Source: Asanoa ishikariensis | Lineage (GTDB): Bacteria > Actinomycetota > Actinomycetes > Mycobacteriales > Micromonosporaceae | NCBI RefSeq assembly: GCF_900107455.1 | Contig: NZ_FNQB01000003.1 | Coordinates: forward strand, 806,001-870,000 | Direction of reading: 5' to 3' | Length of the DNA stretch: 64,000 nt | Shown here: piece by piece, positions 8,656 through 27,507 of the stretch | Numbering within the stretch: the stretch's first letter is position 1 | Layout of the letters: every line of letters begins with the position of its first letter | Made by a program: the position numbers and the translations under genes | The notes under the pieces: model-generated | What the model was told of the DNA's origin: nothing | The model's database searches: none | What the model saw: only the letters and a program-made list of their open reading frames with translations

Positions 8656-9236
8656 TGGTCCACGGGCTCCCCTCTGATGTATTCGACCGCCGCGTCCAAC
8701 AGCCACCGGGCCAGGTAGTCGGCGAACGACGCGCCGACGAAGACCCGATAGGTCGTGGAGGCGGTCTGGTGCAGGATCACCTGGGCCTTGGCCAGGTTCG
8801 TCCGCGCGCACGAGCCCGGGCCGAAGACGCGCGGATGCAGGTCGAGGGCGCACCCGTGCGCCAGCACCTCACGCGCGTGCGGCCCGCTCAGCTCCACGAC
8901 GGTGCGGCCCGCGGAGACGTCCACCGCGGAGACGCCAGGGAGGTCGTCGGCCATCGCCTCGGCCAGGGCTGAGCCGGGCTCGTCGACGAGCAGGTACCAG
9001 CCGGGACCGCACCACAGCGCGTAGCGCGGTCCGGTGCCGGCCGCGTGCCCGGCGGTGGGCCAGGAGGCGGCCAACAGCGGGCCGGGGAACAGGGCTGCGC
9101 CGAGCCGCGCCATCGCCGGCTCAGCGGGATCGCCACGAACCTCGAAGGAGCTCAGGTACGGGAGCTCGCGCATGATGCCGGTGGCAGCCAGCGGTTCGGC
9201 CAGGTGCGCCAGCGGGCTTCTACGCGGGTCAGCCAT
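8652..9236 (-). CDS. soxG: Sarcosine oxidase subunit gamma
   Basis: 194 residues. The family pattern is present: [10 protein letters not shown] at the N-terminus, [43 protein letters not shown] and the [18 protein letters not shown] end. SoxG is the small GcvT-like subunit of heterotetrameric sarcosine oxidase, which oxidatively demethylates sarcosine to glycine with transfer of the one-carbon unit to tetrahydrofolate. It overlaps soxA by 8 bp upstream and betA by 4 bp downstream, completing the soxBDAG order. Confidence 0.9.
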
Positions 9237-12057
9237 CGCGGCGTGCTCCCTCCGGGTCGTAGAAGACCGGCTCGGTCACCACGACCGGCTGCGCTCGGCC
9301 GGCGTCGACGGCGTACAACGTCTCGCCGCGGAGGGTCAGGCCTCCGGCTACCAGTGCGAGCGCGAACGACCGCCCGAGCGCCGCGCTTCGGTAGCTGGAC
9401 GTGACGTGGCCGAGCATCGGGACCGGTGTCGGGGCGTCCGCGTCGACGACTAGCTGAGCACCCTCGGCGAGGACCACCGACGGGTCCGCCGGGAGCAGGC
9501 CGACGAGCCGCTTGCGGTCCGCCCGGGCGGTGTCCGCACGTGCCAACGAACGCGAACCGATGAAGTGCTTGGCGGTCGACACCGCCCAGCCGAGTCCCGC
9601 GTCGTGCGGCGTGACCGTGCCGTCGGTGTCCTGGCCGGCGACGATGAAGCCCTTCTCGGCCCGCAGTACGTGCATGGTCTCGGTGCCGTAGGGCGTGATC
9701 CCCTGGGCCAGCAGGGCATCCCACAGCGCCAGCCCGTGCCACGCCGGCACGTTGATCTCGTAGCTCAGCTCGCCGGTGAAGCTGATCCGGAACACCCGCG
9801 CCGGGATACCGGCCACCGTGGCGTCGCGGACCGACAGGAACGGGAACGCCGGTGCCGAGACGTCCAGGGAAGGTGCGAGCCGGCGCAGCACCTCCCGCGA
9901 GCCGGGGCCGACGACCGCGACCGCCGCCCACTGGTCCGTGACGGACGTCGCGGAGACCCGAAGAGAGGGCCATTCCGTCTGGAGCCACTCCTCCAGCCAG
10001 TCCAGCACCGCCGCGGCGTTCCCAGTCGTCGTGGTCAGGTGCCAGCGATCAGGCGCGATGCGGGCGGTGACCCCGTCGTCGAAGACCATCCCGTCGGCGA
10101 GACACATCACGCCGTAGCGGCACTGCCCGACCTTCAGCGTCGAGAACCTGTTGGTGTAAATGCGGTCGAGGAACTCCCCGACGTCCGGGCCGCTAAGTGA
10201 GATCTTGCCCAGCGTGGACACGTCCATCATCGCCACGCCTTCCCGGGCCGCGCGACACTCACGCTCGACGGCGCGGTCCAGGTCCTCGCCGGGCCTCGGG
10301 TAGTACCAGGGCCGCTTCCACTGCCCGACGTTCTCGAAGACCGCATCGGCGGCCTCGTGCCGTTCGTGCATCGGCGTCCGGCGCTCCGGGTCCAGCAGCC
10401 GGCCGCGGTCCCGACCGGCGAGCAGACCAAACGAGATCGGCGTGTACGGAGGCCGGTAGGTCGTCGTGCCGACCGCACCGACGGGAAGGCCCAGGAGCCC
10501 GGCCAGGACGCCGACCGTCGTGACACCGGTGGTACGCCCCTGGTCCGCCGCCGTTCCCGCCGTGGTGTACCGCTTGACGTGTTCGCTGGAGGTCATCCCG
10601 GCGCCGACCGCGCGCCGCACGTCGTGCAGCGTCGCGTCGCGCTGCAGGTCGACGAAGACGGTGTCGGGTCGCAGGTCGCTGGTGAGCCAGCAGGCCGCCG
10701 GCGCCCCGGCATCGGCCACCGAGTCGGTGGCGGGTGGCAACGGCTCCTCGCCACCGCCGCCATGGGTGCCCGCGCCCGCCTGCCAGCCCGCCTCCGCACC
10801 CTCGGCGAGCGCGTCGGCCAGGCCGAACGTGCCCGCCGCCGCACCGACACACGAGACCGCCGGCACGGGGTCGCCGGGCACGAACGCGGCGTGGTCGGCC
10901 GACCAGAGGGGCCGCCCGCCGGCCTGGCTGTACAGGTGGACAGCCGGGTTCCAGCCGCCAGAGGTGGCGACCAGGTCGCAGGGCACCCGACGGGGTGAAC
11001 CGTCGACGGGCGCCACCCACGCGGCTTCCAGCACGCCGTCCGCGTCAGCGTCCGTGCCCACCACGCCGTGGCCAGCGCTCACGGCGACGCCCCGGTCCCG
11101 CAGCGCCCGGTGCACCTGGCCCTCCGGGAGCCGGCGCACGTCGAGCACCGCGGCCAACTCGACGCCCGCGTCGAACAGGTCGACCGCCGCCCACAACGCG
11201 CCGTCGTGCGCCCCGGCCACGACGGCACGTCGCCCCGGCAAGACGCCGTAGCGCCAGGCATACCCGGCCGCCGCCGCGGCGAGCATGATGCCGGGCCGGT
11301 CGTTGTCCGGGAACAGGATCGGCCGTTCGTGGGCGCCGGTGGCCAGCACCACCCGCGCGGCGCGGATGTGCCACAGCCGTTGCCGGGCCACGTGTGCCGG
11401 CGCGTCCGCCCCGAGATGGTCGGTCCGCCGCTGCACCGCCACCAGGAAGTTGCCGTCGTAGAAGCCGGTGACGGTCGTGCGGGTGAGCACCCGGACCTCC
11501 GGCAGGCCGGTCAACCGGGCGTGCACGTCGCGGACCCAGTCCATCGCCGGGCGCCCGTCGAGGTGGGCGCGGCCGGCCAGCAGCTCGCCACCGGGCTCCG
11601 GCCGCTCGTCGGCCAGGATCACCCGGGCGCCGGTGACCGCCGCGGCGTGCGCCGCCGCCAGACCGGCGGGGCCAGCGCCGACGACGAGCACGTCGCAGTG
11701 CGCCCACGTCTTGTCGTACCGGCTGTGGTCAGGCTCGTCGCTCAGCTCTCCTCTGCCGGCCAGCGACCGGGCGACCAGACCGTCGTACACCTCGAGCGTG
11801 GTGGCCCGGACCATCGGCTCCCCCGGCCCGGAGTCGACCTGGACGAACGCGTTGGGCTCCTCGGCGCCGATGCCGTACGTGCCGCGCGGTCGACCGGTGT
11901 ACGGCCCACGCGCGACGACCCGGACCCCGTGCGCGAGCAGCGCCGAACTGAGGGTGTCGCCGGGATGTGCCTCGAAAGCCCGGCCGTCGAAGTGGAAGTT
12001 GAGCGTCCGGCTCCGATCGATCCGGCCACCGGCGGCGCGGCGGAACGCCTGGCTCAC
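9229..12057 (-). CDS. soxA: Sarcosine oxidase subunit alpha
   Basis: 942 residues from GTG 12057, chosen because it overlaps the soxD stop (GTGA, 12054-12057) and begins VSQAFRRAAGGRIDRSR, the usual SoxA beginning; the open frame upstream of it only shadows soxD. An N-terminal 2Fe-2S-ferredoxin-like fold (LNFHFDGRAFEAHPGDTLSSAL) is followed by an NAD(P)/FAD-type domain (VVGAGPAGLAAAHAAA; VVLATGAHERPI) and a C-terminal GcvT-like folate-binding domain (roughly the last 370 residues, with GEDLDRAVERECRAAREGVAMMDVSTLGK). It is the large catalytic subunit; the folate domain would capture formaldehyde as 5,10-methylene-THF. Confidence 0.93.
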   Translation of the reverse strand: MSQAFRRAAGGRIDRSRTLNFHFDGRAFEAHPGDTLSSALLAHGVRVVARGPYTGRPRGTYGIGAEEPNAFVQVDSGPGEPMVRATTLEVYDGLVARSLAGRGELSDEPDHSRYDKTWAHCDVLVVGAGPAGLAAAHAAAVTGARVILADERPEPGGELLAGRAHLDGRPAMDWVRDVHARLTGLPEVRVLTRTTVTGFYDGNFLVAVQRRTDHLGADAPAHVARQRLWHIRAARVVLATGAHERPILFPDNDRPGIMLAAAAAGYAWRYGVLPGRRAVVAGAHDGALWAAVDLFDAGVELAAVLDVRRLPEGQVHRALRDRGVAVSAGHGVVGTDADADGVLEAAWVAPVDGSPRRVPCDLVATSGGWNPAVHLYSQAGGRPLWSADHAAFVPGDPVPAVSCVGAAAGTFGLADALAEGAEAGWQAGAGTHGGGGEEPLPPATDSVADAGAPAACWLTSDLRPDTVFVDLQRDATLHDVRRAVGAGMTSSEHVKRYTTAGTAADQGRTTGVTTVGVLAGLLGLPVGAVGTTTYRPPYTPISFGLLAGRDRGRLLDPERRTPMHERHEAADAVFENVGQWKRPWYYPRPGEDLDRAVERECRAAREGVAMMDVSTLGKISLSGPDVGEFLDRIYTNRFSTLKVGQCRYGVMCLADGMVFDDGVTARIAPDRWHLTTTTGNAAAVLDWLEEWLQTEWPSLRVSATSVTDQWAAVAVVGPGSREVLRRLAPSLDVSAPAFPFLSVRDATVAGIPARVFRISFTGELSYEINVPAWHGLALWDALLAQGITPYGTETMHVLRAEKGFIVAGQDTDGTVTPHDAGLGWAVSTAKHFIGSRSLARADTARADRKRLVGLLPADPSVVLAEGAQLVVDADAPTPVPMLGHVTSSYRSAALGRSFALALVAGGLTLRGETLYAVDAGRAQPVVVTEPVFYDPEGARRDG

Positions 12058-12308
12058 GGCGTCACCCCCGGCGCGAACTCGTACGTCACGGTGTGCCGGA
12101 CGACGTCGAACCACCGCCGGCAGCCCGCCGAATGGAACCAGCGCTCGGCGAACCAACCCTTGGGGTTGTCGCGCAGGAACAGGTAGGAGGCCCACTCGGC
12201 GTCGGACAGGGCGGCCGGGTCGGATGGGTAGGCCACGTGCGCCTGCCCGCCGTACTTGAACTCGGTCTCGTCGCGCGGCCCGCACCACGGGCACGGCACA
12301 CTCAGCAT
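12054..12308 (-). CDS. soxD: Sarcosine oxidase subunit delta
   Basis: 84 residues, MLSVPCPWCGPRDETEF... with the zinc-binding CPWCG pair at residues 6-9 and a further Cys in HSAGCRRWFDVVRHTVTYEF. Length and sequence match SoxD, which contributes the structural zinc site of heterotetrameric sarcosine oxidase. It lies 13 bp after soxB and overlaps soxA by 4 bp, the canonical B-D-A-G order. Confidence 0.92.
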   Translation of the reverse strand: MLSVPCPWCGPRDETEFKYGGQAHVAYPSDPAALSDAEWASYLFLRDNPKGWFAERWFHSAGCRRWFDVVRHTVTYEFAPGVTP

Positions 12309-12321
12309 CGCGGCAACCCCC

Positions 12322-13518
12322 TCAGTGCGCGACCGCGGCCGCGCCGTGCTCGTCGACGAGCGCGCCGGTCGTGAAGCGGTCCAGGGCGAACGGCGCGGCG
12401 AGCGGGTGCGGGCGGCCGTGGGCGATGGTGTCCGCGTACACCCAGCCCGCGCCGGGGGTGGCCTTGAAGCCGCCGGTCCCCCAGCCGCAGTTGACGAACA
12501 CGTTCTCGACCGGTGTCAGGCCCAGCACCGGCGACGCGTCCGGGGAGACGTCGACGATCCCGGCCCAGGTACGCAGCACGTGCGCCCGCGCGAAGATGGG
12601 GAACAGTTCGACGGCGGCGGCCATCTGGCTCTCGATGACGTGGAATGAGCCACGCTGCCCGTAGCCGTTGTACGCGTCGACGCCGGCACCCATCACCAGC
12701 TCGCCCTTGTGCGCCTGGCTCACGTAGACGTGGATGGCGTTGGACATGACGACCGTGTCCAGCACCTGCTCCAGCAACTCGGACACCAGCGCCTGGAGCG
12801 GATGGCTGGCCAGCGGCAACCGGAACCCGAGCTCCGATGCCAGCACCGACGTGTGGCCGGCCGCGCACAGGGCGACCCGGTCGGCCTCGATGGTGCCGCG
12901 GCTCGTGACGACACCGCGGACGCGGTCCCCATCACGGAGGAAACCGGTGACCTCACAGTTCTGGATCAGGTGCACCCCGAGGCGATGCGCGGCGCGCGCG
13001 TAGGCCCACGCGACGTAGTCATGCTTCGCGATCCCGGCGCGCGGCTGGAAAGTGGCGCCCATGACGGGGTACCGCAGCTCCTGCGACGTGTTGATGATCG
13101 GCACGAGCTTCTTCACCTCGGCCGGGGTCAGCCACTCGGCGTCCACACCGTTGAGGCGGTTCGCGTTCACCCGGCGGATGCCCTCCCGCACGTCGGGCAG
13201 GCTGTGCGCGAGGTTGAGCACGCCGCGCTGGCTGAACAGGATGTCGTAGTCGAGCTCGTCGGACAGGCCCTCCCACAGCTTGAGCGAGTGCTCGTAGATG
13301 GCCGCGCTCGCGTCCCACAGGTAGTTGGACCGGATGATGGTCGTGTTGCGGGCCATGTTGCCGCCGGCCAGCCACCCGCGTTCGAGCACGGCCACGTTGG
13401 TGATCCCGTGGTTGCGGGCCAGGTAGTAGGCGGTGGCCAGGCCGTGCCCGCCGGCACCGATGACGACGACGTCGTACCCGCGCTCGGGTTCGGGGTCGGC
13501 CCAGAGGAAGTCCGTCAC
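12322..13518 (-). CDS. soxB: Sarcosine oxidase subunit beta
   Basis: 398 residues. The FAD Rossmann motif [18 protein letters not shown] is at 17-34, followed by the SoxB-specific [41 protein letters not shown]-binding residues cluster near HPLQALVSE and the C-terminal [22 protein letters not shown] is typical. SoxB carries the covalently bound FMN and the sarcosine oxidation site. Its ATG overlaps the dmgO stop by 4 bp, coupling removal of the second and third betaine methyl groups. Confidence 0.93.
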
Positions 13519-15912: not shown

Positions 15913-16875
15913 TCAGTTCTTGATCCAGGCCTGCCAGACGTCGGGGTTGGCCTCGACCCACTTCTTCGCGGCGTCGTCGTCGGAGAGCTTGTTGACGGCG
16001 ATGTCCAGGGCCACGGCGTTCTGGTGCTCGTTCGTCCACTGGAAGTTCTTGATCAGCGCGGCGGCCGGGCTGCCCGAGTCCGCGAACTTCTTGCTCACGA
16101 TCTTGTCGAGGTCGTACGGGGCGTAGTCGCAGGCGACCTTCGCCGGATCCGCGTCACAGCCTTCCGTGTACGCGGGCAGGTTGACGTGGACGAGCTTGAC
16201 CTCGCTCAGGAACCACTGCGGCTCGTAGAAGTAGCCGATCATCCACTGCTTCTGCTGCTCGGCGGTCCGGAACGCCTGGATCAGCGCGGCCTCGCTGCCG
16301 GCGTACACCACTTTGAAGTCGAGCTTGAGGTTCTTGACCAGTGCCTCGTCGTTGGTGACGAACGACGGGTCGCCGAGGAGCAACTGGCCCTTCCCGCCGG
16401 ACTCGGAGGTCTTGAACTTGTCCGCGTACTTGTTCAGGTTGTTCCAGTCGGTGATGTCCGGGTGCTCCTGCGCCAGCCACGGCGGCACGTACCAGCCGAT
16501 GATGCCCTTGTTGCCGGTCAGTCCGTACTCGACGGCCACTTTCTGCTCGTCGATGTAGGTCTTCTTGAGGTCGGGGTGGCCCCAGTTCTCCAGGACCACG
16601 TCGACCGCGCCGGTGCCGAAGCCCTGCCAGGACACCTCTTCGGTGAGGTTCTTCTTGGTGACCGTGCAACCCAGTTCCTTGGTCGCGATGTACGCGATGA
16701 CGGCCGCGTCGGCCTGGTAGCCGACCCACGGGTTGACCGCGATGTTCACCGTGCCGCAGGCCGCCTTGCTCGGCGACGTCGACCCGGAGTTCTCGATCTT
16801 CGAACCGCACGCGGTCAGCGCGAGGGCGCCCACCGCCAGCACTGCCACGAACCTGCCTATGCCAACTCTGCTCAC
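15913..16875 (-). CDS. proX: Glycine betaine/proline-type ABC transporter substrate-binding lipoprotein
   Basis: 320 residues with a lipoprotein signal (lipobox LTAC, Cys23). The mature part begins CGTVNIAVNPWVGYQADAAVI, the OpuAC/ProX fold start, and contains several Trp/Tyr residues (VSWQGFGTGAVDVVLENWGH; GIIGWYVPPWL; MIGYFYEPQWF) of the kind that form an aromatic cage for quaternary ammonium compounds. It sits between the permease gene (15 bp away) and dmgO (10 bp), so importer and demethylases are probably one transcript. Glycine betaine is the likely ligand; choline or other betaines are possible. Confidence 0.88.
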   Translation of the reverse strand: MSRVGIGRFVAVLAVGALALTACGSKIENSGSTSPSKAACGTVNIAVNPWVGYQADAAVIAYIATKELGCTVTKKNLTEEVSWQGFGTGAVDVVLENWGHPDLKKTYIDEQKVAVEYGLTGNKGIIGWYVPPWLAQEHPDITDWNNLNKYADKFKTSESGGKGQLLLGDPSFVTNDEALVKNLKLDFKVVYAGSEAALIQAFRTAEQQKQWMIGYFYEPQWFLSEVKLVHVNLPAYTEGCDADPAKVACDYAPYDLDKIVSKKFADSGSPAAALIKNFQWTNEHQNAVALDIAVNKLSDDDAAKKWVEANPDVWQAWIKN

Positions 16876-16890
16876 GAATCCGTCCCCTTC

Positions 16891-18888
16891 TCAGCCTCGA
16901 TTTCCCACGTCGGCGCCGAAGCGCCGGGCGGCTGCCTGGGTGGTGCGGTCGAGCAGGACGCCCAGCAGCACGACCGCGACGCCGGCCGCGAGGCCCTTGC
17001 CGTAGAGATCGGACTGTGAGAACCCGGCGACGACGAGATAACCGAGAGCGCCGGCCCCGACCAGGCCGCCGACCACCACCATCGACAGGACGTAGATCAG
17101 GCCCTGGTTGGCGGCGAGGGTCAGCGACTGACGGGCCAGCGGAAGCTGGACCTTGGTGATGACCTGCCAGGAGCTGGAGCCGGACGCGGTGGCCGCCTCC
17201 ACGACGGTGGCCGGCACACCCCGCACGCCGTCCGCGACGAGCTTGATGGCCACGGGCGCCGCGAACACGACCGCCGCGACGATGGCGGTGAACCGGCTGG
17301 CGCCGAACAGGCCGAGGAACGGCACCAGGTAGACGAACGCCGGCATGACCTGGGCGGCGTCGAGGGTCGGGCGGATCAGCCCGTCGGCCCGGTCGCTGCG
17401 CCCCATCCAGACACCGACGACGACGCCCAAGGCCATCACGATGACGGTGGCGACCAGGGTGGCGGCCAGCGTGACCATGGCCTCCTGCCACAGGCCGGTG
17501 GCGACCAGCAGGCCCAGGCAGACCGCGACGGTCGGCACGATCCGGGCGCCGGCGACGATCCACGCGAGGGCGAGCACGACCGTCGACACGAGGTACCAGG
17601 GCGACTCCGCGATCAGGGACTGCAGCGGGTTCAGGAGCCCGTAGCTGATCGCGTTGCGGATGGCGTCGGTGACGGCACCGAGGTGGACCTGCACCCAGTC
17701 GCTGGCCTGGGTCACCCCGCTCGCGACCTGACCGCCGACGACGCCGCCGCTGTCCGGACCGGGAAAGAAGGCCGCCCAGACGTAGGTGTACGACAGGTAC
17801 AGCGAGACCGCGGCGCCGACTCCCAGCCCGGCGAGGGTTACGCGGCGGCGGCCGCGGGCCTTCGGGCCGAGGCGGTACTGGGTCTCCACCCGGTCCCGGG
17901 CGGCGGTGGTGACCCGGTCGAGGACGATCGCCATGATGACGATGGCCAGCCCGGCGCTGAACGCGGTGCCGACGTCGAGGGTCTGCAGGGCGCGCAGGAC
18001 GACCTGGCCGAGGCCGGGCGCGTCGATCAGCGCGGCGATGGTGACCATCGACAGCGCGCACATGACGGTCTGGTTGACGCCCAGCACGATCGTGCGCTTG
18101 GCCAACGGCACCCGGACCGTCCGCAGGAGCTGCCACTTCGTCGCGCCGAGCGAGGTGCCGGCCTCCACCGAGGAGAGGGCCACGGTCCGGATGCCGTGGG
18201 CCGTGATGCGGATGACCGGCGGCATCGCGTAGATGAGGGTCGCGATGACGCCGGAGGCCGGGCCGATCAGGAAGAACAGGGTCAACGGCGCGAGGTAGAC
18301 GAACGTCGGCATCGTCTGCATGAAGTCCAGGACCGGCGTGAGCACCCGGTGCAACCGATCGGACAGGCCGGCCCAGATCCCGAGCGGGATCCCGATGAGC
18401 AGGCAGATGAGCACCGCGGCCAGCGTCAGGGCCAGCGTGTCCATGCTCTGCTGCCAGTAGCCGAGCAGGCCGAACGAGGTGAACCCGGCCGCGGTCAGGA
18501 CCGCGACCCGCAGGTTGCCGACGGCGTACGCGCACAGGGTGGCCACCGCGACGACGCCCAGCCAGCCGATCAGCGGCACCGGTCGGCCGTACGCGGGCTG
18601 GCTGATCAGGGACTGGAGGAACACGGTCAGCGCGTCGACGGCCTGGCGGATCACGTCGAAGAACGCGGTGAAGACCGGGCTGCTCCCCCGGGAGCTGTTG
18701 ATGGCGTCGCGCAGGTCGTTGACCCGCTCGTGCAGCGGCGTGAGCTCCGACGTGGACAGTTCGAGCGTGTCCCGGCCGCGCAGCGGGATCCACAGCAGCA
18801 CCCAGACCGCGACCACGGCACCGACCAGGGCGCCCCGGGGCAGCCGCGCGGCACGGCGGCGGACCGCCCCCGCGCTCAGCGTCGTCAT
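16891..18888 (-). CDS. proW: Glycine betaine-type ABC transporter permease with two fused permease domains
   Basis: 665 residues from ATG 18888 ([17 protein letters not shown]), which overlaps the ATPase stop by 4 bp. Two complete binding-protein-dependent permease domains lie in tandem: the first around 145-320 ([24 protein letters not shown] as EAA loop) and the second around 455-655 ([25 protein letters not shown]). Each is preceded by its own N-terminal helix block ([37 protein letters not shown]). Most ProW proteins have one such domain and dimerise; here one gene encodes both halves. The frame stays open far upstream through two other genes, but codons there are antisense-like. Confidence 0.9.
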
Positions 18889-19949
18889 GGCTCCTCCGCC
18901 ACGATCACGCGCAGGATCGCCTCGTCGTCCACCATGCCGACCAGCACGCCGTCGTGGACGACCTTGACCGGCGCGGCTGACGACAGCACGGCCCGGACGG
19001 CGTCGCGCACCACGACGTCGGCGCCGAGCTCCGGACCGTCGAGCGGGTCGTCGTCGCGGACCGGACGCATCACCCAGCGGATGGTCAGCACGTGCGACTT
19101 GGGCACGTCGGCGACGAAGTCCCGCACGTAGTCGTCGGCGGGAGCGCCGACCACCTCGTCCGGCCGTCCGATCTGGACGGCCGCGCCGTCGCGCATGATC
19201 AGGATGCGGTCGCCGAGGCGCAGGGCCTCGTGCAGGTCGTGGGTAATGAAGATCATTGTCTTGCCGACCTCGTGGTGCAGCCGCAGGACCTCGTTCTGCA
19301 TGTCCCGGCGGATCAGCGGGTCGAGCGCGGAGAACGGCTCGTCGAAGAACAGGATCTGCGGGTCGACGGCGAGGGCCCGGCCCAGACCCACCCGCTGTTG
19401 CATGCCGCCGGAGAGCTGGTCGGGGAAGTGGTCCGCGTAGCCGCTCAGCCCGACCAGGTCGAGGACCTCGCCGGCGCGCCGGTACCGCTCGGTCTTGGCA
19501 ACGCCGCGGATCTCCAGCCCGTACGCGACGTTGTCCAGGACCCTCCGGTGCGGCAGCAGCCCGAAGTGCTGGAACACCATGGCGAACCGGTGCCGGCGCA
19601 GGTCGCGCAGCCGGCGCGGGTCGGCGCCCCGGATGTCCTCGCCCTCGATGAGCACGGACCCGGAGGTCGGCTCGACCAGGCGGGTCAGGCAGCGCACGAG
19701 GGTCGACTTGCCGGAGCCGGACAGACCCATCACCACGAACACCTCGGTGGGCGCCACCGTGAACGAGATGTCGCGGACGGCCGCGACGCACGCGGTTTGG
19801 GCCAGCAGCTCGGCACGCGGTAGCTCCGCGAGCGGGGTGCCGACGATCCGGTCCGCCCGCGGCCCGAACACCTTCCAGAGCTGCGACACGGCCAGCGCCG
19901 GCTCGGTGGCAGCCTGCACCCGTTCGTCTGCGATCAAGGGCTCTGGCAT
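18885..19949 (-). CDS. proV: Glycine betaine-type ABC transporter ATP-binding protein
   Basis: 354 residues from ATG 19949. N-terminal ProV-type segment ([14 protein letters not shown]), Walker [11 protein letters not shown]-loop [11 protein letters not shown], signature [15 protein letters not shown], Walker [14 protein letters not shown] and H-loop ITHDLHEAL. The C-terminal ~100 residues form a CBS-type regulatory region ([10 protein letters not shown]...[19 protein letters not shown]) as in ProV/OpuAA. A good sigma-70-type promoter lies about 55 bp upstream, so transport genes can be expressed separately from mttB. Confidence 0.92.
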
Positions 19950-20042: not shown

Positions 20043-21482
20043 TCAGTCGCCGAGTTCCTTGCGCCGCCGCACGACGTACTCGTCGAGCTCCGCGCGGATC
20101 GCCTCGTCCAGCGGGGGTTGCTCGTAGTCTTCGAGCTGCTTGCGGGCAATCTCCCCCGCCCGGGCCGCCGCGTCCTGGCCGCCGTTGCGCAGCCACCGCT
20201 CGTAGTTCGCCGACGACGAGACCAACGGGCGGTAGAAGCACGTGCGGAACCGTTCCATCGTGTGTGCCGCACCGAGGAAGTGGCCGCCGTGCCCGACCTC
20301 GGCGTGCGCGTCGAACGCCAGCGCGGCCTCGTCGATCTCCAACGGCGTGAACTCCGCCTGGAGCATGCGCAGGATCTCGATGTCGATCACGAACTTCTCG
20401 TAGCTGGCCACCAGCCCGCCCTCGAGCCAGCCGGCCGCGTGCATGACCCAGTTCGTGCCGGCCAAGAACGTCGGCAACATCGTCATCATCGCCTCGTACG
20501 CCGACTGCGCGTCGGCGGTCTGGCTGGAGGTCAGGCCGCCGCCGGTGCGGAACGGGAGGCCGAAGCGGCGCGCGATCTGTCCTGTGCAGAGCAGGCCGAT
20601 CGCCGACTCCGGCGTGCCGAAGCAGGGCGAGCCGGACTGCATGTCGATGTTCGACAGGAACGAGCCGAAGATGACGGGCGAGCCGGGTCGGATGAGCTGT
20701 GACAGGGCGATCCCGGTCAGCGCCTCGGCCATCTGCTGGACGAGCGTTGCCGGCACCGACACCGGCGACATCGCGCCCATCAGCAGGAACGGGGTGATCA
20801 CGACCGCCTGGTTGGCGGCGCTGTACTCGAGCTGGGCGTCGAGCATTCGGTCGTCCCAGCGCAGGGGTGAGTTGCAGTTGATGAGCGAGATCGTCGCGGG
20901 CGTACGCTCGATCGCCTCCCGCCCGCCGAACAGGATCTCGGTCATCGCGATGGTGTCGCGGGCGTTGCCGCCGGACACGACATTGCCCATGTAGATCTTG
21001 TCGGTGAGCGTCTGCAACGCAAGGACCATGTCGAGGTGCCGCGAGTCGAGCGGCGTGTCGTTGGGCTCGCAGACCACCCCGCCCGCGGAGTCGAGCTGCG
21101 GGAACCGTTGGGCGAGCTTGGTGAACCGGCGGAAGTCGTCCATCGTCGCCTCGCGACGGACCTCCCCGTCGCGGACGAACGGTGGTCCGTAGACCGCGCC
21201 GAAGGCCATGTGGTCGCCGCCGAGGTGCACGGAGTTGGCGGGATTGCGGGCCTGCACGTCGAACTCGCGGGGTGCCTTCGCCACCTGTTCGAGCACGAAG
21301 TCGGGATCGAACCGGACCAGGTTCCCCTCGACCGTCTGCCCGGCCGCGCGGAACAGGTCGAGGGCCCGGTCGGACAGGAACTCCACCCCGATGTCGCTGA
21401 CCAGACGCCGCCAGCCCTTGTCCAACACGGCCATCGCGTCCTGGGACAGGATCTCGTAGCGGGGCATCTTGTTGACGAACAT
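20043..21482 (-). CDS. Trimethylamine methyltransferase (MttB) superfamily protein without pyrrolysine; probable glycine betaine:corrinoid methyltransferase
   Basis: 479 residues with a strong ribosome site (AAGGGAGG) 4-5 bp before ATG 21482. The MttB fold is recognisable throughout: VLDKGWRRLVSDIGVEFLSDRALDLFRAAG near the N-terminus, FAGAVYGPPF-like FGAVYGPPFVRDGEVRREATMDDFRRF, NCNSPLRWDDRMLDAQLEY, GAMSPVSVPATL, GSFLSNIDMQSGSPCFGTPE and MHAAGWLEGGLVASYEKFVID. The frame is uninterrupted by amber codons, so it is of the non-pyrrolysine class (the MtgB type, known to demethylate glycine betaine in Desulfitobacterium). The reaction would be transfer of a methyl group from a quaternary amine to Co(I) of the corrinoid protein encoded divergently at 22.4 kb. 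Neighbours (betaine importer, dimethylglycine oxidase) favour glycine betaine; proline betaine or carnitine are alternatives. Confidence 0.88.
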   Translation of the reverse strand: MFVNKMPRYEILSQDAMAVLDKGWRRLVSDIGVEFLSDRALDLFRAAGQTVEGNLVRFDPDFVLEQVAKAPREFDVQARNPANSVHLGGDHMAFGAVYGPPFVRDGEVRREATMDDFRRFTKLAQRFPQLDSAGGVVCEPNDTPLDSRHLDMVLALQTLTDKIYMGNVVSGGNARDTIAMTEILFGGREAIERTPATISLINCNSPLRWDDRMLDAQLEYSAANQAVVITPFLLMGAMSPVSVPATLVQQMAEALTGIALSQLIRPGSPVIFGSFLSNIDMQSGSPCFGTPESAIGLLCTGQIARRFGLPFRTGGGLTSSQTADAQSAYEAMMTMLPTFLAGTNWVMHAAGWLEGGLVASYEKFVIDIEILRMLQAEFTPLEIDEAALAFDAHAEVGHGGHFLGAAHTMERFRTCFYRPLVSSSANYERWLRNGGQDAAARAGEIARKQLEDYEQPPLDEAIRAELDEYVVRRRKELGD

Positions 21483-21539
21483 ATGACCTCCCTTGACGCG
21501 ATGGTCGAGAGGATTTTACGCTCGTCAATTGAAACTGCA

Positions 21540-21556
21540 GTTCTACAATATGGAAC
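21540..21556. promoter_or_regulatory. Predicted IclR operator in the mttB/iclR divergent region
   Basis: The 17-bp imperfect palindrome GTTCTACAATATGGAAC has GTTC/GAAC ends, a common arrangement for IclR-family operators. A second, perfect 10-bp dyad (AACTGCAGTT, 21533-21542) overlaps its left end. The -10-like TACAAT for the plus-strand regulator (21544-21549) lies inside the palindrome, so binding would repress the regulator itself. A minus-strand -10-like TAAAAT (complement of 21513-21518) could serve mttB. Confidence 0.5.
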
Positions 21557-21569
21557 TCCGGAGTCGAGC

Positions 21570-22340
21570 GTGGTCAACCAGCAGACCGGCACCCAGGCGG
21601 TCGATCGGGCCGCCGAGTTGCTGACGCATGTGGTCGAGGCGGCCGCGCCGCGCACGTTCACCTCGCTCGTCGAGCAGACCGGGCTGGCGAAGTCCACCGT
21701 GTCCCGGCTGCTCCAGGCGCTCGAACGCCACCGCCTCGTCCAGCGCGACCGCAGCGGCGTGTTCCGCCCGGGCGCGGTGTTCGCCCTGTACGCGGCCCGG
21801 CACGGCGTCGGCAACGACCTCGTCGAGTTGGCCATGCCGACACTGGAGCGGATCGGTGCGCGCACCGGCGAGACGATCAACCTCGCGGTGCCGCGCGGCG
21901 AGGCGGTCGTGCAGGTCGCGCAGGTCGACAGCGTGCACCTGCTCGGCACCACCAACTGGGTCGGGCTCAGCGTGCCCGCGCACTGCTCGGCCCTCGGCAA
22001 GATCTTCTACGCGTTCCGGACCCTTCCCCTGCCGACCGGCACGCTCGAACGTCGCACACCGCGGACGATCACCAGCCGCACAGAGCTCGAGCGCGATCTC
22101 GCGACGGTGATCCGGCGCGGCTACGCGGTCGCCCGCGAAGAGCTGGAACCGGGCCTGGTGGCCGTGGCCAGCCCGGTCCGCGCGCGGGACGGCGCCGTCG
22201 TCGCGGCGATCTCCGCCTCCGGCCCCACCGCCCGGATCACCGAGCGACGGGCCGAGCAGATCGGCGCGCTGCTGGTCACCGAGGCGGCAACGCTCTCATC
22301 GATCCTCGGCCACACCGCACGAACGGAGGGCGCCGCATGA
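21570..22340 (+). CDS. IclR family transcriptional regulator
   Basis: 256 residues from GTG 21570, selected for the GGAG ribosome site 6 bp upstream and the normal family length; the open frame extends upstream antisense to mttB. The N-terminal winged helix is AVDRAAELLTHVVEAAAPRTFTSLVEQTGLAKSTVSRLLQALERHRLVQRD. The effector domain includes ETINLAVPRGEAVVQVAQVDS, the conserved SVPAHCSALGKIF and ELEPGLVAVASPVRARDGAVVAAISASGP. It is divergent from mttB and heads the corrinoid operon, so it probably senses the betaine substrate or an intermediate and controls both arms (inference). Confidence 0.9.
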   Translation: MVNQQTGTQAVDRAAELLTHVVEAAAPRTFTSLVEQTGLAKSTVSRLLQALERHRLVQRDRSGVFRPGAVFALYAARHGVGNDLVELAMPTLERIGARTGETINLAVPRGEAVVQVAQVDSVHLLGTTNWVGLSVPAHCSALGKIFYAFRTLPLPTGTLERRTPRTITSRTELERDLATVIRRGYAVAREELEPGLVAVASPVRARDGAVVAAISASGPTARITERRAEQIGALLVTEAATLSSILGHTARTEGAA

Positions 22341-22385
22341 GGAAGCTTGCGACCGAATCATTTGGCTCAGTAGCCAGGGTCATGC

Positions 22386-22400
22386 CCGCGCGAAGCGCGG
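22386..22400 (+). other. Small hairpin just upstream of the corrinoid protein start
   Basis: CCGCGC-GAA-GCGCGG forms a perfect 6-bp stem with a 3-nt loop, ending 7 nt before ATG 22408. There is no good ribosome site before that ATG, and the stem could influence translation of the corrinoid protein. No cobalamin riboswitch could be recognised in the 67-bp gap after the IclR gene. Confidence 0.3.
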
Positions 22401-22407
22401 TGGGCGC

Positions 22408-23073
<666 letters not shown>

Positions 23074-23086
23074 GGGGTGTAGCACG

Positions 23087-23941
23087 ATGCACACCGTTGT
23101 CCGGTCCGCGTCGCGGACCGTCGTCATCGGACCGGACCAACCGTTCTGCGTCATCGGCGAACGACTCAACCCCACCGGCCGCCGCATCTTCCAGGATCAG
23201 TTGCGGGCCGGCGACCTGTCCCGCATCGAGCTCGACGTCGCCGAGCAGGTGGCCGGCGGCGCCATGGTGCTCGACGTCAACATGGGCGTCCCGTTGCTCG
23301 ACGAGGCCGAGCTGCTGTCCAAGGTCGTCCGGCTCGTGCAGGGCGTGACCGACCTGCCGCTGTGCATCGACTCCTCGGTCGTCGAGGCACTGGACGCCGG
23401 CCTGGCCGCCTACGAGGGCAAGGCGCTGGTCAACTCGGTCACCGCCGAGGACGACCGGCTCCAGGCGATCCTGCCCCTGGTCAAGCGGTACGGGGCCGCG
23501 GTCGTCGCCCTGCCCAACGACGAGGAGGAGATCCCGGAGGACCCGGCCCGACGGCTGGAGCTGGCCCGCAAGATCGTCGACGTGGCGACCGGCAAGTACG
23601 GCATCCCGATCGAGGACATCGTCATCGACCCGCTCGCGATGCCGGTCGGCGCCGACACGTCCCTGGTGGCGAAGACGCTCGACACGATCGCGATGATCAA
23701 GGACGAGCTCGGGGTGAACATGACGCTGGGCGCGTCCAACGTCTCCTTCGGCATGCCGCACCGGCACGCGCTGGGCGCGGCCTTCCTGCCGATGGCGATG
23801 CACGCCGGTCTCACCAGCGCCATCATGGACGCGCGTACACCCCAGATCGTCGACGCCGTCAAGGCGGCAGACCTGCTGCTCGGCAACGACGAGTGGGGCG
23901 CCAACTGGATCTCGATGTTCCGGGCCAGGCAGGCCGGATGA
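23087..23941 (+). CDS. MtrH/MtgA-like (dihydropteroate synthase-fold) methylcorrinoid:tetrahydrofolate methyltransferase
   Basis: 284 residues of the pterin-binding TIM barrel: FCVIGERLNPTGR at 20-32, AGGAMVLDVNMGVPL, LPLCIDSSVVEALDAGL, ALVNSVTAEDDRL, and LGASNVSFGMPHRHALGAAFL. This is the layout of corrinoid/THF methyltransferases (MtgA, AcsE) rather than of folate biosynthesis, where a different substrate loop would be expected. It should move the methyl group from methyl-Co(III) corrinoid to THF. The stop overlaps the next start (ATGA, 23938-23941). Product methyl-THF can be oxidised by the MetF homologue at 6.2-7.0 kb. Confidence 0.9.
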   Translation: MHTVVRSASRTVVIGPDQPFCVIGERLNPTGRRIFQDQLRAGDLSRIELDVAEQVAGGAMVLDVNMGVPLLDEAELLSKVVRLVQGVTDLPLCIDSSVVEALDAGLAAYEGKALVNSVTAEDDRLQAILPLVKRYGAAVVALPNDEEEIPEDPARRLELARKIVDVATGKYGIPIEDIVIDPLAMPVGADTSLVAKTLDTIAMIKDELGVNMTLGASNVSFGMPHRHALGAAFLPMAMHAGLTSAIMDARTPQIVDAVKAADLLLGNDEWGANWISMFRARQAG

Positions 23942-25767
23942 CTGACCTGGTCAGCCACGACGGCCACGGCCGGGTGCGGGTGCATTTCACGCCCGCCGCC
24001 CGCGACATCCGCGTGCCGCCCGGCGTGACCGTGTTCGACGCCGCGAGCTGGAACGGCATCGCCATCGACTCCACCTGCGGCGGCCACGGCACGTGTCGCA
24101 AGTGCCTGATCCGGGTCGACGAGGGCGCGCTGCCGGTGTCCTCATTGGACGTCCGTGCCTTCGGCGCCGACCAGTTGCGAGAAGGCTGGCGGCTCGCCTG
24201 CCGGGCGCACGTCACCGAGAACCTGCGCGTCGAGGTGCCACCGCTGGTCACCCGACCCAAGGCGGCGACGGTCGGGGTGGGCCGGCAGGTGATCCTGCGG
24301 CCGGCCATCCAGAAGCGCTACCTGGAGCTGACCGAGCCGACGCTCGCCGACCAGACGCCCGACCTCGAACGGCTGCTCGCCGCGATCGACGACCTCGAGC
24401 CGCGGGTGGACCTCGCGGTGCTGCGCGGCCTCGGTCGGACCCTGCGGGCCAGCGACTTCAAGGTGACGGCGGTGATCGTCGACGAGGTCCTGGTCGACGT
24501 CCAGGCCGGCGACACCACCGGCCGCTGCTTCGGCATCGCGTTCGACCTGGGCACCACCACCGTCGTCGCGAACCTGCTCGACGTCAGCACCGGCACACCC
24601 ATGGCCGTGCGCTCCGCGCTCAACGCGCAGCAGCCGTTCGGCGGCGACGTGATCACGCGGATCAGCGCGACGATGCTCGACCCCGCGGCGCTGGACCGGC
24701 TGCGCTCCCTGGCCCACGAGACGCTCGACGAGCTCACCCGCGAGGTCTGCGCCGCCGCCGAGGTCGAGCCGCACGAGATCTACGAGGTGGCGCTGGCGGG
24801 GAACGCCACCATGGTGCACATCGCGCTGGGCATCGACCCGGAGCCGCTGGGCGTGGCGCCGTTCATCATGTCGACCCGGGCGTTCCCCGAGATCATGGCC
24901 GCCGATCTGGGGATCCAGGTGCACCCGCGGGCCAGGGCGGCGGTGTTTCCGTCGCTGGGCGCGTACGTCGGTGGCGACATCGTCGCCGGGCTGCTCGCCT
25001 CCGGGATGGACCGCGACCGCCGGATGCGGCTGTTCATCGACATCGGCACCAATTGCGAGATCGTGCTGGGCAACGCCGAACGCCTCGTGGCGACCGCCGC
25101 TCCGGCCGGGCCGGCGTTCGAGGGTGCCTCCATCCGGTGCGGCATGCGCGCCGCCGACGGCGCGATCGAGGTCGTCCGCATCCGCGCCGGGGCGCTGGAG
25201 CTCGGCGTGATCGGCGACGCGACGCCGGCCGGGCTGTGCGGGTCCGGCCTCGTCGACGCCGTCGCGGCCCTCGTCGACGCCGGGCTCATCGACTCCACCG
25301 GCCGTTTCGTCCCGGAGGAGGACGCCGCCCGGATCGCACCGACGCTGGCGGCACGGTTCGGCAAATGGGACGGCGAGCGGGTCTTCGTCCTGTACGAGGA
25401 CGTCGTGCTGTCCCAGCGGGACGTGCGCGCGCTCCAGTTCGCGAAGGCCGCGATCGCCACCGGATGGAACCTGCTGCTCGGGGAGTTGGGTGTCGACCGC
25501 GGCGACATCCAGCAGGTGCTGCTGGCCGGCTCGTTCGGCAGTTACCTGTCACCGGCCAGCGCCATCCGCATCGGGCTGGTCCCGAAGCTGCCCGTGCTGC
25601 GTGTCGTCAGCGCCGGGAACGTGGCCGGCGAGGGGGCCAAGATGGCGCTCTTGAGCGTGCGTGAGCGGGCCGGTGCCACGACGTTGCTGGAGGAGGTCGA
25701 ATACGTTGAGCTCTCCGATCGGACCGACTTCAACGACCGCTTCGTCGATCTGCTCGCCTTCCCCTGA
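23938..25767 (+). CDS. RACo-type ATP-dependent corrinoid reductive activator (2Fe-2S + ASKHA, DUF4445)
   Basis: 609 residues from ATG 23938; the frame is open upstream but the coupled ATG gives the correct 2Fe-2S beginning. Cys47, Cys53, Cys56 (STCGGHGTCRKC) and Cys88 (LACRAH) form a ferredoxin 2Fe-2S site. A linker (about 105-195) precedes the ASKHA ATPase-like domain: GIAFDLGTTTVVANLLD at 199-215, LAGNATMVH, LFIDIGTNCEIVLGN and LLAGSFGSYLSP. RACo proteins reduce inactive Co(II) corrinoid back to Co(I) at the cost of ATP. Its presence is strong support for a working corrinoid methyltransferase that must cope with oxidation. Confidence 0.92.
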   Translation: MTDLVSHDGHGRVRVHFTPAARDIRVPPGVTVFDAASWNGIAIDSTCGGHGTCRKCLIRVDEGALPVSSLDVRAFGADQLREGWRLACRAHVTENLRVEVPPLVTRPKAATVGVGRQVILRPAIQKRYLELTEPTLADQTPDLERLLAAIDDLEPRVDLAVLRGLGRTLRASDFKVTAVIVDEVLVDVQAGDTTGRCFGIAFDLGTTTVVANLLDVSTGTPMAVRSALNAQQPFGGDVITRISATMLDPAALDRLRSLAHETLDELTREVCAAAEVEPHEIYEVALAGNATMVHIALGIDPEPLGVAPFIMSTRAFPEIMAADLGIQVHPRARAAVFPSLGAYVGGDIVAGLLASGMDRDRRMRLFIDIGTNCEIVLGNAERLVATAAPAGPAFEGASIRCGMRAADGAIEVVRIRAGALELGVIGDATPAGLCGSGLVDAVAALVDAGLIDSTGRFVPEEDAARIAPTLAARFGKWDGERVFVLYEDVVLSQRDVRALQFAKAAIATGWNLLLGELGVDRGDIQQVLLAGSFGSYLSPASAIRIGLVPKLPVLRVVSAGNVAGEGAKMALLSVRERAGATTLLEEVEYVELSDRTDFNDRFVDLLAFP

Positions 25768-26353
25768 GCTCCGGACGGCCGTCATCGCCTGCGGTGCCCT
25801 CGCCACGGACGTCTCCCGGGTCGCCGCGGCCCGCGGTTGGCCGGTGGACGTCCATCCCCTGCCGCCGCTGCTGCACAACCGGCCGGCGAAGATCGCTCCC
25901 GCGGTGGAAGAACTCGCCACAACGCTGCGCGACCGCTACAGTACCGTCGCCGTCGCCTATGCCGACTGCGGCACGTACGGCGCCCTCGACGAGGTCTGCG
26001 GCCGGCTCGGGCTGCGTCGACTGGGCGGTTCGCACTGCTACGACGCGCTGGCCGGCGCGGGCCGCCTGCGCGATCTGGTGAGTCGCGAGCCGGGCACGTA
26101 CCTATTGACCGACTTTCTGGTCCGTTCGTTCGAACGGACGGTTGTCGCGGAGCTTGGCCTCGACCGTTGGCCGGAGCTACGCGACGACTACTTCGGGCAC
26201 TACCGGCGCGCGGTCTGGCTGGCCCAACGGCCTGACGCGCGGTTGTCGGCGCTGGCTCACGCCGCCGCCGACAAGCTCGGCCTGCCACTCACGGTCCTGC
26301 ACGTCGGCGATGCCGGCCTGGAACGCGAGTTGGCGGCACTGCTCCGTCAATGA
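25706..26353 (+). CDS. DUF1638 domain protein
   Basis: 215 residues if translated from TTG 25706, which has AGGAGG 9 bp upstream; there is no ATG or GTG near the conserved start AVIACGALATDV. Conserved pieces include LLHNRPAKIAPAVEEL, VAVAYADCGTYGALDEVC, GSHCYDALAGAG and LLTDFLVRSFERTV, with Cys residues in CGALA, DCGTYG and SHCYD that could bind metal. DUF1638 proteins recur next to MttB-family methyltransferases in anaerobes (family knowledge); their role is unknown. The gene overlaps the 3' end of the reactivase gene by about 62 bp in another frame. Confidence 0.82.
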   Translation: MSSPIGPTSTTASSICSPSPELRTAVIACGALATDVSRVAAARGWPVDVHPLPPLLHNRPAKIAPAVEELATTLRDRYSTVAVAYADCGTYGALDEVCGRLGLRRLGGSHCYDALAGAGRLRDLVSREPGTYLLTDFLVRSFERTVVAELGLDRWPELRDDYFGHYRRAVWLAQRPDARLSALAHAAADKLGLPLTVLHVGDAGLERELAALLRQ

Positions 26354-27501: not shown

Positions 27502-27507
27502 CCTTTG

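What the first reader, a model, noticed from the sequence alone, without database searches (positions are those of the whole stretch)
20043..26353. Corrinoid-dependent methyltransferase system wired into an aerobic betaine pathway
An MttB-family methyltransferase without pyrrolysine, a corrinoid protein (GDVHDIG), an MtrH/MtgA-like pterin methyltransferase, a RACo reactivase and a DUF1638 protein form a complete methyl-transfer set. Known members come mainly from anaerobes because Co(I) is oxygen-sensitive. Here they flank a betaine-type importer, dimethylglycine oxidase and sarcosine oxidase, enzymes that use O2. The simplest reading is a glycine betaine:THF methyltransferase performing the step usually done by BHMT or GbcAB. 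Seen: gene set and order. Inferred: substrate and oxygen tolerance.
Basis: partly seen in the sequence, partly recalled or inferred. Interest (0 to 1): 0.85.

Follow-up and report, generated by a model that had tools for sequence, protein, structure and literature searches.

The report
Vitamin B12-dependent betaine demethylase in actinobacteria
An actinobacterium of the genus Asanoa carries a compact set of vitamin-B12-type enzymes that most likely strips one methyl group off the common osmolyte glycine betaine and keeps it for metabolism; the same idea was published in 2025 for other bacteria, and here it appears as a conserved version with its own branch of the family tree in actinobacteria.

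Summary
Confirmed: window 20043-26353 (Asanoa) encodes a non-pyrrolysine MttB, an IclR regulator, a corrinoid protein, an AcsE/MtgD-type pterin methyltransferase (not MtgA-like), a 2Fe-2S RACo and DUF1638, beside an OpuA-type importer, dimethylglycine oxidase, sarcosine oxidase SoxBDAG, choline dehydrogenase and an MTHFR homologue. All six core genes recur in 52 of 55 full-length loci. In 295 Actinomycetia genomes RACo is in 27 of 27 MttB carriers and 1 of 268 others; DUF1638 in 26 of 27 and 0 of 268. Choline-to-betaine genes lie near MttB in 21 of 26 other carriers. In five MttB-less genomes of one genus a similar choline/betaine cluster carries a Rieske oxygenase plus reductase instead, as expected if both blocks demethylate glycine betaine. 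An MTHFR gene of one of two distinct types lies near or inside the block in 23 of 27 carriers. A palindrome marks the MttB/IclR gap in 68 of 80 loci. Best reading: catabolic glycine betaine:THF methyltransferase. The principle is published (Ruegeria pomeroyi MtgBCD, PNAS 2025), so this is a new member, with its own clade, control and partners. Substrate and oxygen tolerance are inferred, not tested.

The parts
20043..21482 (-). MttB-superfamily methyltransferase without pyrrolysine (proposed glycine betaine:corrinoid methyltransferase)
   Evidence: PF06253 629.8 bits; 46.8% identity to the S. meliloti protein = PDB 4yyc, 40.3% to D. hafniense MtgB 2qne; Leu at the Pyl position
21540..21556 (.). 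predicted operator, GTTCTACAATATGGAAC (one mismatch to GTTCCA-N5-TGGAAC), in the divergent MttB/IclR intergenic region
   Evidence: at <=1 mismatch within 300 bp upstream of MttB in 68 of 80 loci; mean 0.01 of 80 in 100 mononucleotide shuffles
21570..22340 (+). IclR-family transcriptional regulator, divergent from MttB
   Evidence: PF01614 and PF09339; best NCBIfam BhcR, below cut-off; present in 54 of 55 full loci
22408..23073 (+). corrinoid protein (MtgC-like) with GDVHDIG
   Evidence: PF02607+PF02310; best NCBIfam MtgC 207 bits, cut-off 370; PDB best 1y80
23087..23941 (+). methylcorrinoid:THF methyltransferase, AcsE/MtgD type
   Evidence: NCBIfam PRK07535 312 bits over cut-off 259; aligned to Moorella MeTr, residues D75, N96, D160, N199 all kept
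23938..25767 (+). RACo, ATP-dependent reductive activator of corrinoid protein, with N-terminal 2Fe-2S domain
   Evidence: PF00111, PF17650, PF17651, PF14574 all over cut-off; PDB best 3zyy 341 bits
25661..26353 (+). DUF1638 protein (true start probably downstream of 25661; conserved part from about 25769)
   Evidence: PF07796 72 bits; family found in 26 of 27 MttB genomes
18885..19949 (-). OpuA/ProV-type ABC ATPase
   Evidence: NCBIfam proV 341 bits over cut-off 326.6
16891..18888 (-). OpuA/ProW-type permease, two fused domains
   Evidence: PF00528, two stretches; NCBIfam ABC_choXWV_perm 394 bits over 363
15913..16875 (-). OpuAC substrate-binding protein
   Evidence: PF04069 130 bits
13515..15902 (-). 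N,N-dimethylglycine oxidase
   Evidence: PDB 1pj5 926 bits versus 329 for dimethylglycine dehydrogenase 5l46
12322..13518 (-). sarcosine oxidase beta, SoxB
   Evidence: TIGR01373 624 bits over cut-off
12054..12308 (-). sarcosine oxidase delta, SoxD
   Evidence: PF04267 127 bits
9229..12294 (-). sarcosine oxidase alpha, SoxA (ORF start probably too far upstream: it overlaps SoxD)
   Evidence: TIGR01372 1196 bits over cut-off
8652..9236 (-). sarcosine oxidase gamma, SoxG
   Evidence: PF04268 59.5 bits
6997..8853 (-). choline dehydrogenase BetA (true start probably near 8650; the ORF overlaps SoxG)
   Evidence: TIGR01810 818 bits over cut-off, match from residue 71
6165..7013 (-). MTHFR homologue, proposed methyl-THF oxidation
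   Evidence: PDB 7xg9 5,10-methylenetetrahydrofolate reductase 105 bits; PF02219 20.3 bits, below cut-off 24

Best explanation
The block is a dedicated glycine betaine:tetrahydrofolate methyltransferase of an aerobic actinobacterium. Glycine betaine comes in through the OpuA-type importer or is made from choline (BetA here; BetA plus betaine aldehyde dehydrogenase in many related loci). MttB moves one methyl to Co(I) of the corrinoid protein, giving dimethylglycine. The AcsE-type enzyme moves the methyl from Co(III) to THF. An MTHFR homologue probably oxidises methyl-THF to methylene-THF. Dimethylglycine oxidase and SoxBDAG take the remaining two methyls as C1-THF, leaving glycine. RACo, driven by ATP and a low-potential 2Fe-2S cluster, rescues corrinoid oxidised to Co(II); DUF1638 assists in an unknown way. 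The IclR protein controls both divergent transcripts through one palindrome. Shown here: genes, domains, conserved residues, co-occurrence, conserved neighbours, module replacement in one genus, palindrome. Inferred: substrate, direction of the MTHFR step, oxygen tolerance, roles of RACo and DUF1638, regulation. That Asanoa and its relatives are aerobes is recalled.
For: Core six genes in 52 of 55 full-length loci. In 295 Actinomycetia genomes RACo in 27 of 27 MttB carriers and 1 of 268 others, DUF1638 in 26 of 27 and 0 of 268. In the 26 other carriers fetched (stretches of 10-19 kb), BetA and/or BADH in 21 of 26. In five MttB-less genomes of one genus a similar cluster (BetA 77-78%, MTHFR homologue 65-67%, an IclR protein at only 35-38%; four of five also PurU, BADH, OpuA ATPase) carries a Rieske oxygenase and its ferredoxin reductase, and no core corrinoid gene. 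Own genome: three PF02574 proteins, all MetH over cut-off, so no BHMT found; no GbcA or GbcB over cut-off. DMGO orthologue (89% or more) only in the 4 of 6 same-genus genomes with MttB. MTHFR of one of two distinct types in 23 of 27 carriers' stretches. The same gene set in S. meliloti and Paracoccus, a type whose MtgC and MtgD are reported essential for betaine demethylation in R. pomeroyi.
Against: MttB lies in its own clade, outside both D. hafniense MtgB and the S. meliloti 4yyc clade; its nearest rows (long branches) are a Leisingera/pSymA pair of unknown substrate. Family-specific NCBIfam models score below cut-off for MttB and corrinoid protein. 8 of 55 full loci show none of the betaine supply or demethylation genes tested. 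The window's MTHFR type is in only 6 of 27 MttB carriers and in 24 of 268 others, so it is not tied to MttB. 'No GbcA/GbcB over cut-off' is weak: the GbcA cut-off is reached by 0 of 295 genomes and 0 of 14 controls, the GbcB one by 0 of 14 controls. Full-length GbcA-like proteins in 0 of 27 carriers versus 5 of 268 others is not significant. The replacing Rieske enzyme scores 213-228 of the 670-bit GbcA cut-off and its best PDB matches are other ring-hydroxylating/demethylase entries, so it could act on a different betaine. Bmt-like genes or MetH near MttB in L068, L069, L080 hint at methionine coupling in some lineages. No expression, growth or enzyme data.
Confidence: 0.82

Rival explanations
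1. MttB works on another quaternary amine, most plausibly proline betaine (stachydrine) or carnitine, and sits by the betaine genes because the importer and the downstream demethylases are shared.
For: MttB superfamily members differ in substrate at 53% identity (MtyB/MtcB, passage). The actinobacterial clade groups with neither the characterised MtgB nor 4yyc. The Rieske enzyme in the replaced clusters has best PDB matches 3vca and 4qup ('Monoxygenase; demethylase'), ahead of carnitine monooxygenase 6y8j.
Against: BetA and/or BADH, whose end product is glycine betaine, are in the stretch around MttB in 21 of 26 other carriers. Enolase-superfamily genes that sit beside other alphaproteobacterial MttBs (L129, L133) have no match at E<=1e-8 in the 26 carrier stretches or the 80 contig loci; the only hit is a weak one in the window, 14 kb from MttB. 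The genome has one MttB only.
Confidence: 0.11
2. The block is mainly a methyl shuttle for methionine synthesis, as the dual-function MtgBCDE of marine bacteria, rather than a catabolic demethylase.
For: MtgC and MtgD serve both methionine synthesis and betaine demethylation in R. pomeroyi. Bmt-like genes lie near MttB in L068 and L069, and a MetH in L080.
Against: The Asanoa genome encodes three full-length MetH and no separate PF02574 homocysteine module. DMGO, SoxBDAG and the MTHFR homologue point to catabolism.
Confidence: 0.04
3. The system is silent or works only under oxygen limitation; betaine is demethylated aerobically by an unrecognised enzyme, for example the single Rieske oxygenase of this genome.
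For: A single PF00848 protein exists, 39% identical over 330 residues to the Rieske enzyme of the replaced clusters.
Against: It scores 163 of 670 bits against GbcA and a helicase gene lies beside it. The block is linked to DMGO, an oxidase. R. pomeroyi shows the same kind of system in an aerobe, and S. meliloti the same gene set.
Confidence: 0.03

Closest known systems
MtgBCD glycine betaine demethylase of aerobic Ruegeria pomeroyi, with the co-located gene set of Sinorhizobium meliloti (Mausz et al. 2025, PMC12478193)
   Same: Same five functions: MttB-family enzyme, B12 protein, AcsE/MetH-type pterin methyltransferase, ASKHA activator, DUF1638, with an MTHFR nearby; 46.8, 47.9, 50.7, 35.3 and 42.9% identity to the S. 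meliloti Ak57 locus.
   Different: Separate MttB clade; no MtgE-type homocysteine module in the Asanoa genome, three MetH instead; different MTHFR types; IclR plus palindrome; linked to choline/betaine, DMGO and SoxBDAG genes.
MtgABC of Desulfitobacterium hafniense (anaerobe)
   Same: MttB 40.3% identical; same proposed methyl route from betaine to corrinoid to THF.
   Different: The pterin enzyme is not MtgA-like: no MtgA chain among its 17 PDB matches; clade outside MtgB.
MttB of Methanosarcina (trimethylamine methyltransferase)
   Same: Same superfamily (PF06253).
   Different: 25.3% identity, Leu at the pyrrolysine position, THF-type acceptor enzyme instead of a CoM system (CoM: recalled).
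GbcAB Rieske glycine betaine monooxygenase
   Same: Catalyses the same carbon step, betaine to dimethylglycine.
   Different: Unrelated, needs O2 and loses the methyl as formaldehyde (recalled); a Rieske enzyme of this general kind replaces the corrinoid block in five related clusters.
S6MTHFR of Sphingobium lignivorans SYK-6 (PMC12585457)
   Same: An MTHFR homologue reported to oxidise 5-methyl-THF; PDB 7xg9, which I take to be this enzyme (link recalled), is the best PDB match of window 6165-7013.
   Different: Methyl source there is vanillate via LigM; direction in Asanoa not shown.

Membership tests
MtgBCD aerobic glycine betaine:THF methyltransferase | PF06253 protein without pyrrolysine | tested here: met
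   PF06253 629.8 bits, Leu at Pyl position
MtgBCD aerobic glycine betaine:THF methyltransferase | separate corrinoid protein with DxHxxG | tested here: met
   GDVHDIG, PF02607+PF02310; 47.9% to S. meliloti
MtgBCD aerobic glycine betaine:THF methyltransferase | MtgD/AcsE-type methyl-THF enzyme with conserved pterin residues | tested here: met
   50.7% to S. meliloti; D75, N96, D160, N199 conserved
MtgBCD aerobic glycine betaine:THF methyltransferase | reductive activator (RamA/RACo type) and DUF1638 | tested here: met
   co-occurrence
MtgBCD aerobic glycine betaine:THF methyltransferase | MttB in the same clade as proven glycine betaine enzymes | tested here: not met
   own clade (100/99), outside 2qne and outside 4yyc; R. 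pomeroyi SPO2108 and SPO2134 were not available
MtgBCD aerobic glycine betaine:THF methyltransferase | activity with glycine betaine; growth defect of mutants | not testable with these tools
   bench work needed
MtgBCDE dual-function methionine synthase | separate homocysteine module MtgE | tested here: not met
   three PF02574 proteins in the genome, all MetH over cut-off
D. hafniense MtgABC | MtgA-type pterin methyltransferase | tested here: not met
   17 PDB matches at E<=0.001, none MtgA
MtpB, MtcB, MtyB (E. limosum) | grouping with those proteins in a tree | not tested
   I obtained none of these sequences; only an identity quoted in a paper was seen
GbcAB | GbcA and GbcB over curated cut-off in the same genome | tested here: not met
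   the GbcA cut-off is reached by none of 295 genomes, so the test is weak
RACo | 2Fe-2S, linker, middle and ASKHA C-terminal domains | tested here: met
   all four over cut-off, 3zyy 341 bits

The most novel reading that the evidence does not exclude
Across Actinomycetota the first demethylation of glycine betaine is done by two interchangeable blocks plugged into one choline/betaine cluster: an O2-consuming Rieske oxygenase in some lineages and, in others including small-genome relatives of the freshwater Nanopelagicales, an O2-independent B12 block under one IclR operator that saves the methyl as methyl-THF and oxidises it with a recruited MTHFR of either of two distinct types. Unlike the marine MtgBCDE system it would be purely catabolic.
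Probability: 0.55. Interest if true: 0.6.

Novelty: new member of a known kind. Interest (0 to 1): 0.5.

Why it matters
It extends corrinoid-dependent betaine demethylation, shown genetically so far in a marine proteobacterium, to a conserved form with its own clade in actinobacteria, and gives a clean test: similar clusters with two unrelated demethylating blocks. It also names a likely operator and likely methyl-THF oxidases, and makes RACo plus DUF1638 a near-perfect marker of this trait in the Actinomycetia genomes sampled. If right, vitamin B12 supply would limit betaine use in these organisms.

Tried and rejected
MtgA-like pterin enzyme: rejected. Substrate from MttB phylogeny alone: tried, does not decide; the E. 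limosum enzymes could not be added. The window's MTHFR type as a marker tied to MttB: rejected, 6 of 27 carriers against 24 of 268 others; what holds is that 23 of 27 carriers' stretches have one of two distinct MTHFR types (18 + 4 + the window), 2 of the other 4 being cut by contig ends. Mutual exclusion of MttB and full-length GbcA-like proteins: no statistical support. DUF1638 function from fold: confident model (pLDDT 90.7) but no PDB fold match at E<=0.001 (best 2.7e-3, TM 0.30) and no PDB sequence match better than E 0.07; five invariant residues C8, H36, C67, C77, C90 are a lead only. Cobalamin riboswitch: no Rfam family reaches its gathering score in the window. Second ABC transporter (26371-30229) as part of the system: rejected, found in 2 of 55 full loci, both Asanoa. 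The PF06253 hit of G170 (21.1 bits, below cut-off) was dropped before the counts of 27.

Papers: PMC12478193 seen as outline with abstract, passages and section 5; PMC8604678, PMC9842639, PMC12422013, PMC12381374 as passages; PMC7154762 part 1 of 2; PMC12585457 whole short text. Searches for an actinobacterial description (open-licence papers only): no listed title or abstract start describes this locus, but most listed papers were not opened, among them PMC6081815 (MtgB and Actinobacteria). PMC12478193 does note that 5% of ocean mtgC reads were classified as Actinomycetota.
Full report
What is there. The window is C3:806001-870000 of a 9.09 Mb genome in which one PF06253 protein was found. 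The nearest relatives in named genomes are Asanoa iriomotensis and A. hainanensis at 94% MttB identity. MttB (20043-21482, -) is divergent from IclR, corrinoid protein, pterin methyltransferase, RACo and DUF1638 (21570-26353, +). Downstream of MttB on the - strand follow an OpuA-type importer, dimethylglycine oxidase (PDB 1pj5, 926 bits against 329 for the dehydrogenase), SoxB, SoxD, SoxA, SoxG, choline dehydrogenase and an MTHFR homologue. No betaine aldehyde dehydrogenase was found in the window.

Catalytic anatomy. MttB has Leu where M. barkeri MttB has pyrrolysine, as do D. hafniense MtgB and 4yyc. The corrinoid protein keeps GDVHDIG. The pterin enzyme keeps D75, N96, D160 and N199 of Moorella MeTr (their role in pterin binding is recalled). 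RACo has all four domains and matches 3zyy over residues 14-605 of 609.

Conservation. The single genome-contig scan gave 327 relatives; the best 80 were kept (78-94% identity), all actinobacterial by title; the other 247 were not seen. Of the 80, 55 have at least 20.4 kb. All six core genes are in 52 of 55; BetA in 34, BADH in 35, the OpuA ATPase in 35, the MTHFR homologue in 42, a dimethylglycine oxidase/dehydrogenase or SoxB in 15, PurU in 32, Fhs in 22; 47 of 55 have at least one betaine supply or downstream demethylation gene, 8 have none of those tested, five of them Planomonospora/Planobispora.

Co-occurrence. In 295 Actinomycetia genomes, 27 have MttB over cut-off (a 28th, G170, has a weak hit and was dropped). 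RACo is over cut-off in 27 of 27 and in 1 of 268 others; DUF1638 in 26 of 27 and 0 of 268. The genomes are related, so the Fisher values overstate independence, but in this sample RACo and DUF1638 go with MttB. Within the genus, 4 of 6 genomes have MttB and the same 4 have the close DMGO orthologue.

Neighbours in the other 26 carriers (stretches of 10-19 kb, several cut by contig ends): BetA in 20, BADH in 20, either in 21 of 26. A PF02219 MTHFR (83 bits for the L040 copy) lies between the corrinoid and pterin genes in 18; in L170 the pterin gene itself is beyond the contig end. The window's MTHFR type lies by the block in 4, and in the window 13 kb from MttB. The two types align over only 34 residues. 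So 23 of 27 have one type, L151 and L176 are cut by contig ends, L155 and L156 have neither. Presence of one or the other fits a need to oxidise methyl-THF. Against a tight link, the window's type alone is in 6 of 27 carriers and in 24 of 268 others; and of the 55 full contig loci 8 show neither type within their flanks, two of these being Asanoa loci whose flanks end before it.

Module replacement. The non-carrier genomes with the closest MTHFR homologues (65-68% identity; five genomes of one unnamed genus, all without a PF06253 match) show a similar cluster: BetA 77-78% and the MTHFR homologue side by side in 5 of 5 with an IclR protein (35-38%), and PurU, BADH and the OpuA ATPase in 4 of 5 (not L149). 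In 5 of 5 a Rieske oxygenase (PF00355+PF00848; 88-94% identical to that of L147) and next to it a ferredoxin reductase (80-87% to that of L147) are present, in L150 about 8 kb from BetA, and no core corrinoid gene is found. The Rieske protein's best NCBIfam model is GbcA, far below cut-off. Conversely a Rieske relative is in 1 of 81 MttB loci, at 27%, and in 0 of 26 carrier stretches. I selected these five by the MTHFR hit, so this is one genus, perhaps one event. It still points to glycine betaine, the product of BetA and BADH, as the shared substrate.

Alternatives in this genome. GbcB has no match over cut-off; the single PF00848 protein scores 163 of 670 against GbcA and a helicase gene lies beside it. 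These cut-offs are strict: the GbcA one is reached by 0 of 295 genomes. Three PF02574 proteins are all full-length MetH, so no BHMT was found. One canonical MTHFR exists elsewhere.

Phylogeny. In a tree of 56 MttB proteins (15 of the 80 contig loci, 28 genome-survey loci, the window, nine alphaproteobacterial plasmid proteins, three PDB chains) 42 of 44 actinobacterial rows form one clade (100/99); the other two are second copies from two genomes. The clade is outside D. hafniense MtgB and outside the clade of 4yyc, which is 100% identical over the compared stretch to the S. meliloti Ak57 protein; the nearest rows are Leisingera and pSymA proteins, a join of long branches. Small genomes of family f21 (1.3-1.8 Mb) join named Nanopelagicales rows (99/98). 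The tree neither proves nor refutes the substrate.

Regulation. The MttB/IclR gap holds GTTCCA-N5-TGGAAC at no more than one mismatch in 68 of 80 loci, against 0.01 of 80 in mononucleotide shuffles; one site lies elsewhere in the 1.46 Mb of these loci. It is in 24 of 26 carrier stretches (L169 has a second site away from the gap) and at 21540-21556 in the window. An IclR operator is the natural reading; not tested.

What is known. Mausz et al. (PMC12478193; [quoted passage not shown] pomeroyi, with RamA, DUF1638 and MetF2 more abundant on betaine, and describe a co-located set in S. meliloti. The S. meliloti Ak57 and Paracoccus loci seen here have that set, 35-51% identical to the window's proteins except the MTHFR. 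An MTHFR homologue that oxidises methyl-THF is reported for Sphingobium. So the principle is known; the actinobacterial clade, its control, its MTHFR variants and the Rieske replacement I did not find in print within the searches listed under Tried and rejected.

Verdict. Observation confirmed; interpretation supported at about 0.82; new member of a known kind; interest 0.5.

Noticed in passing
window 21540-21556: Highly conserved palindrome GTTCCA-N5-TGGAAC in the divergent gap.
   Followed up: yes
L146-L150: Five clusters of one unnamed genus with a Rieske oxygenase and reductase in place of the corrinoid block near similar choline/betaine genes.
   Followed up: yes
L152-L154, L157-L171: A PF02219-type MTHFR gene next to the corrinoid gene, between it and the pterin gene.
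   Followed up: yes
L154, L162, L164, L165, L167-L169, L171: Genomes of 1.3-1.8 Mb (family f21, grouping with named Nanopelagicales) keep the block; cobalamin supply there was not checked.
   Followed up: partly
window 25769-26353: DUF1638 has invariant C8, H36, C67, C77, C90 (numbered from 25769) and a confident model without a close PDB fold.
   Followed up: partly
L068, L069, L080: A Bmt-like S-methyltransferase (L068, L069) or a full MetH (L080) within about 6 kb of MttB, hinting at methionine coupling in some lineages.
   Followed up: no
L029, L035, L040, L047, L059: Planomonospora/Planobispora loci lack the tested betaine genes within 10 kb; in L029 an FAD-linked oxidase, an Fe-S CCG protein and malate synthase lie nearby.
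   Followed up: partly
G000 C2:447973, C3:1549897, C3:1587599: Three full-length MetH paralogues in one genome.
   Followed up: no
window 26371-30229: A second ABC importer (SBP_bac_6 type, ATPase nearest a 2-aminoethylphosphonate family, below cut-off) next to DUF1638, found only in the Asanoa loci.
   Followed up: partly
window 35894-37057: ORF with weak similarity (24-31%) to enolase-superfamily proteins that sit beside other MttBs in Alphaproteobacteria.
   Followed up: no
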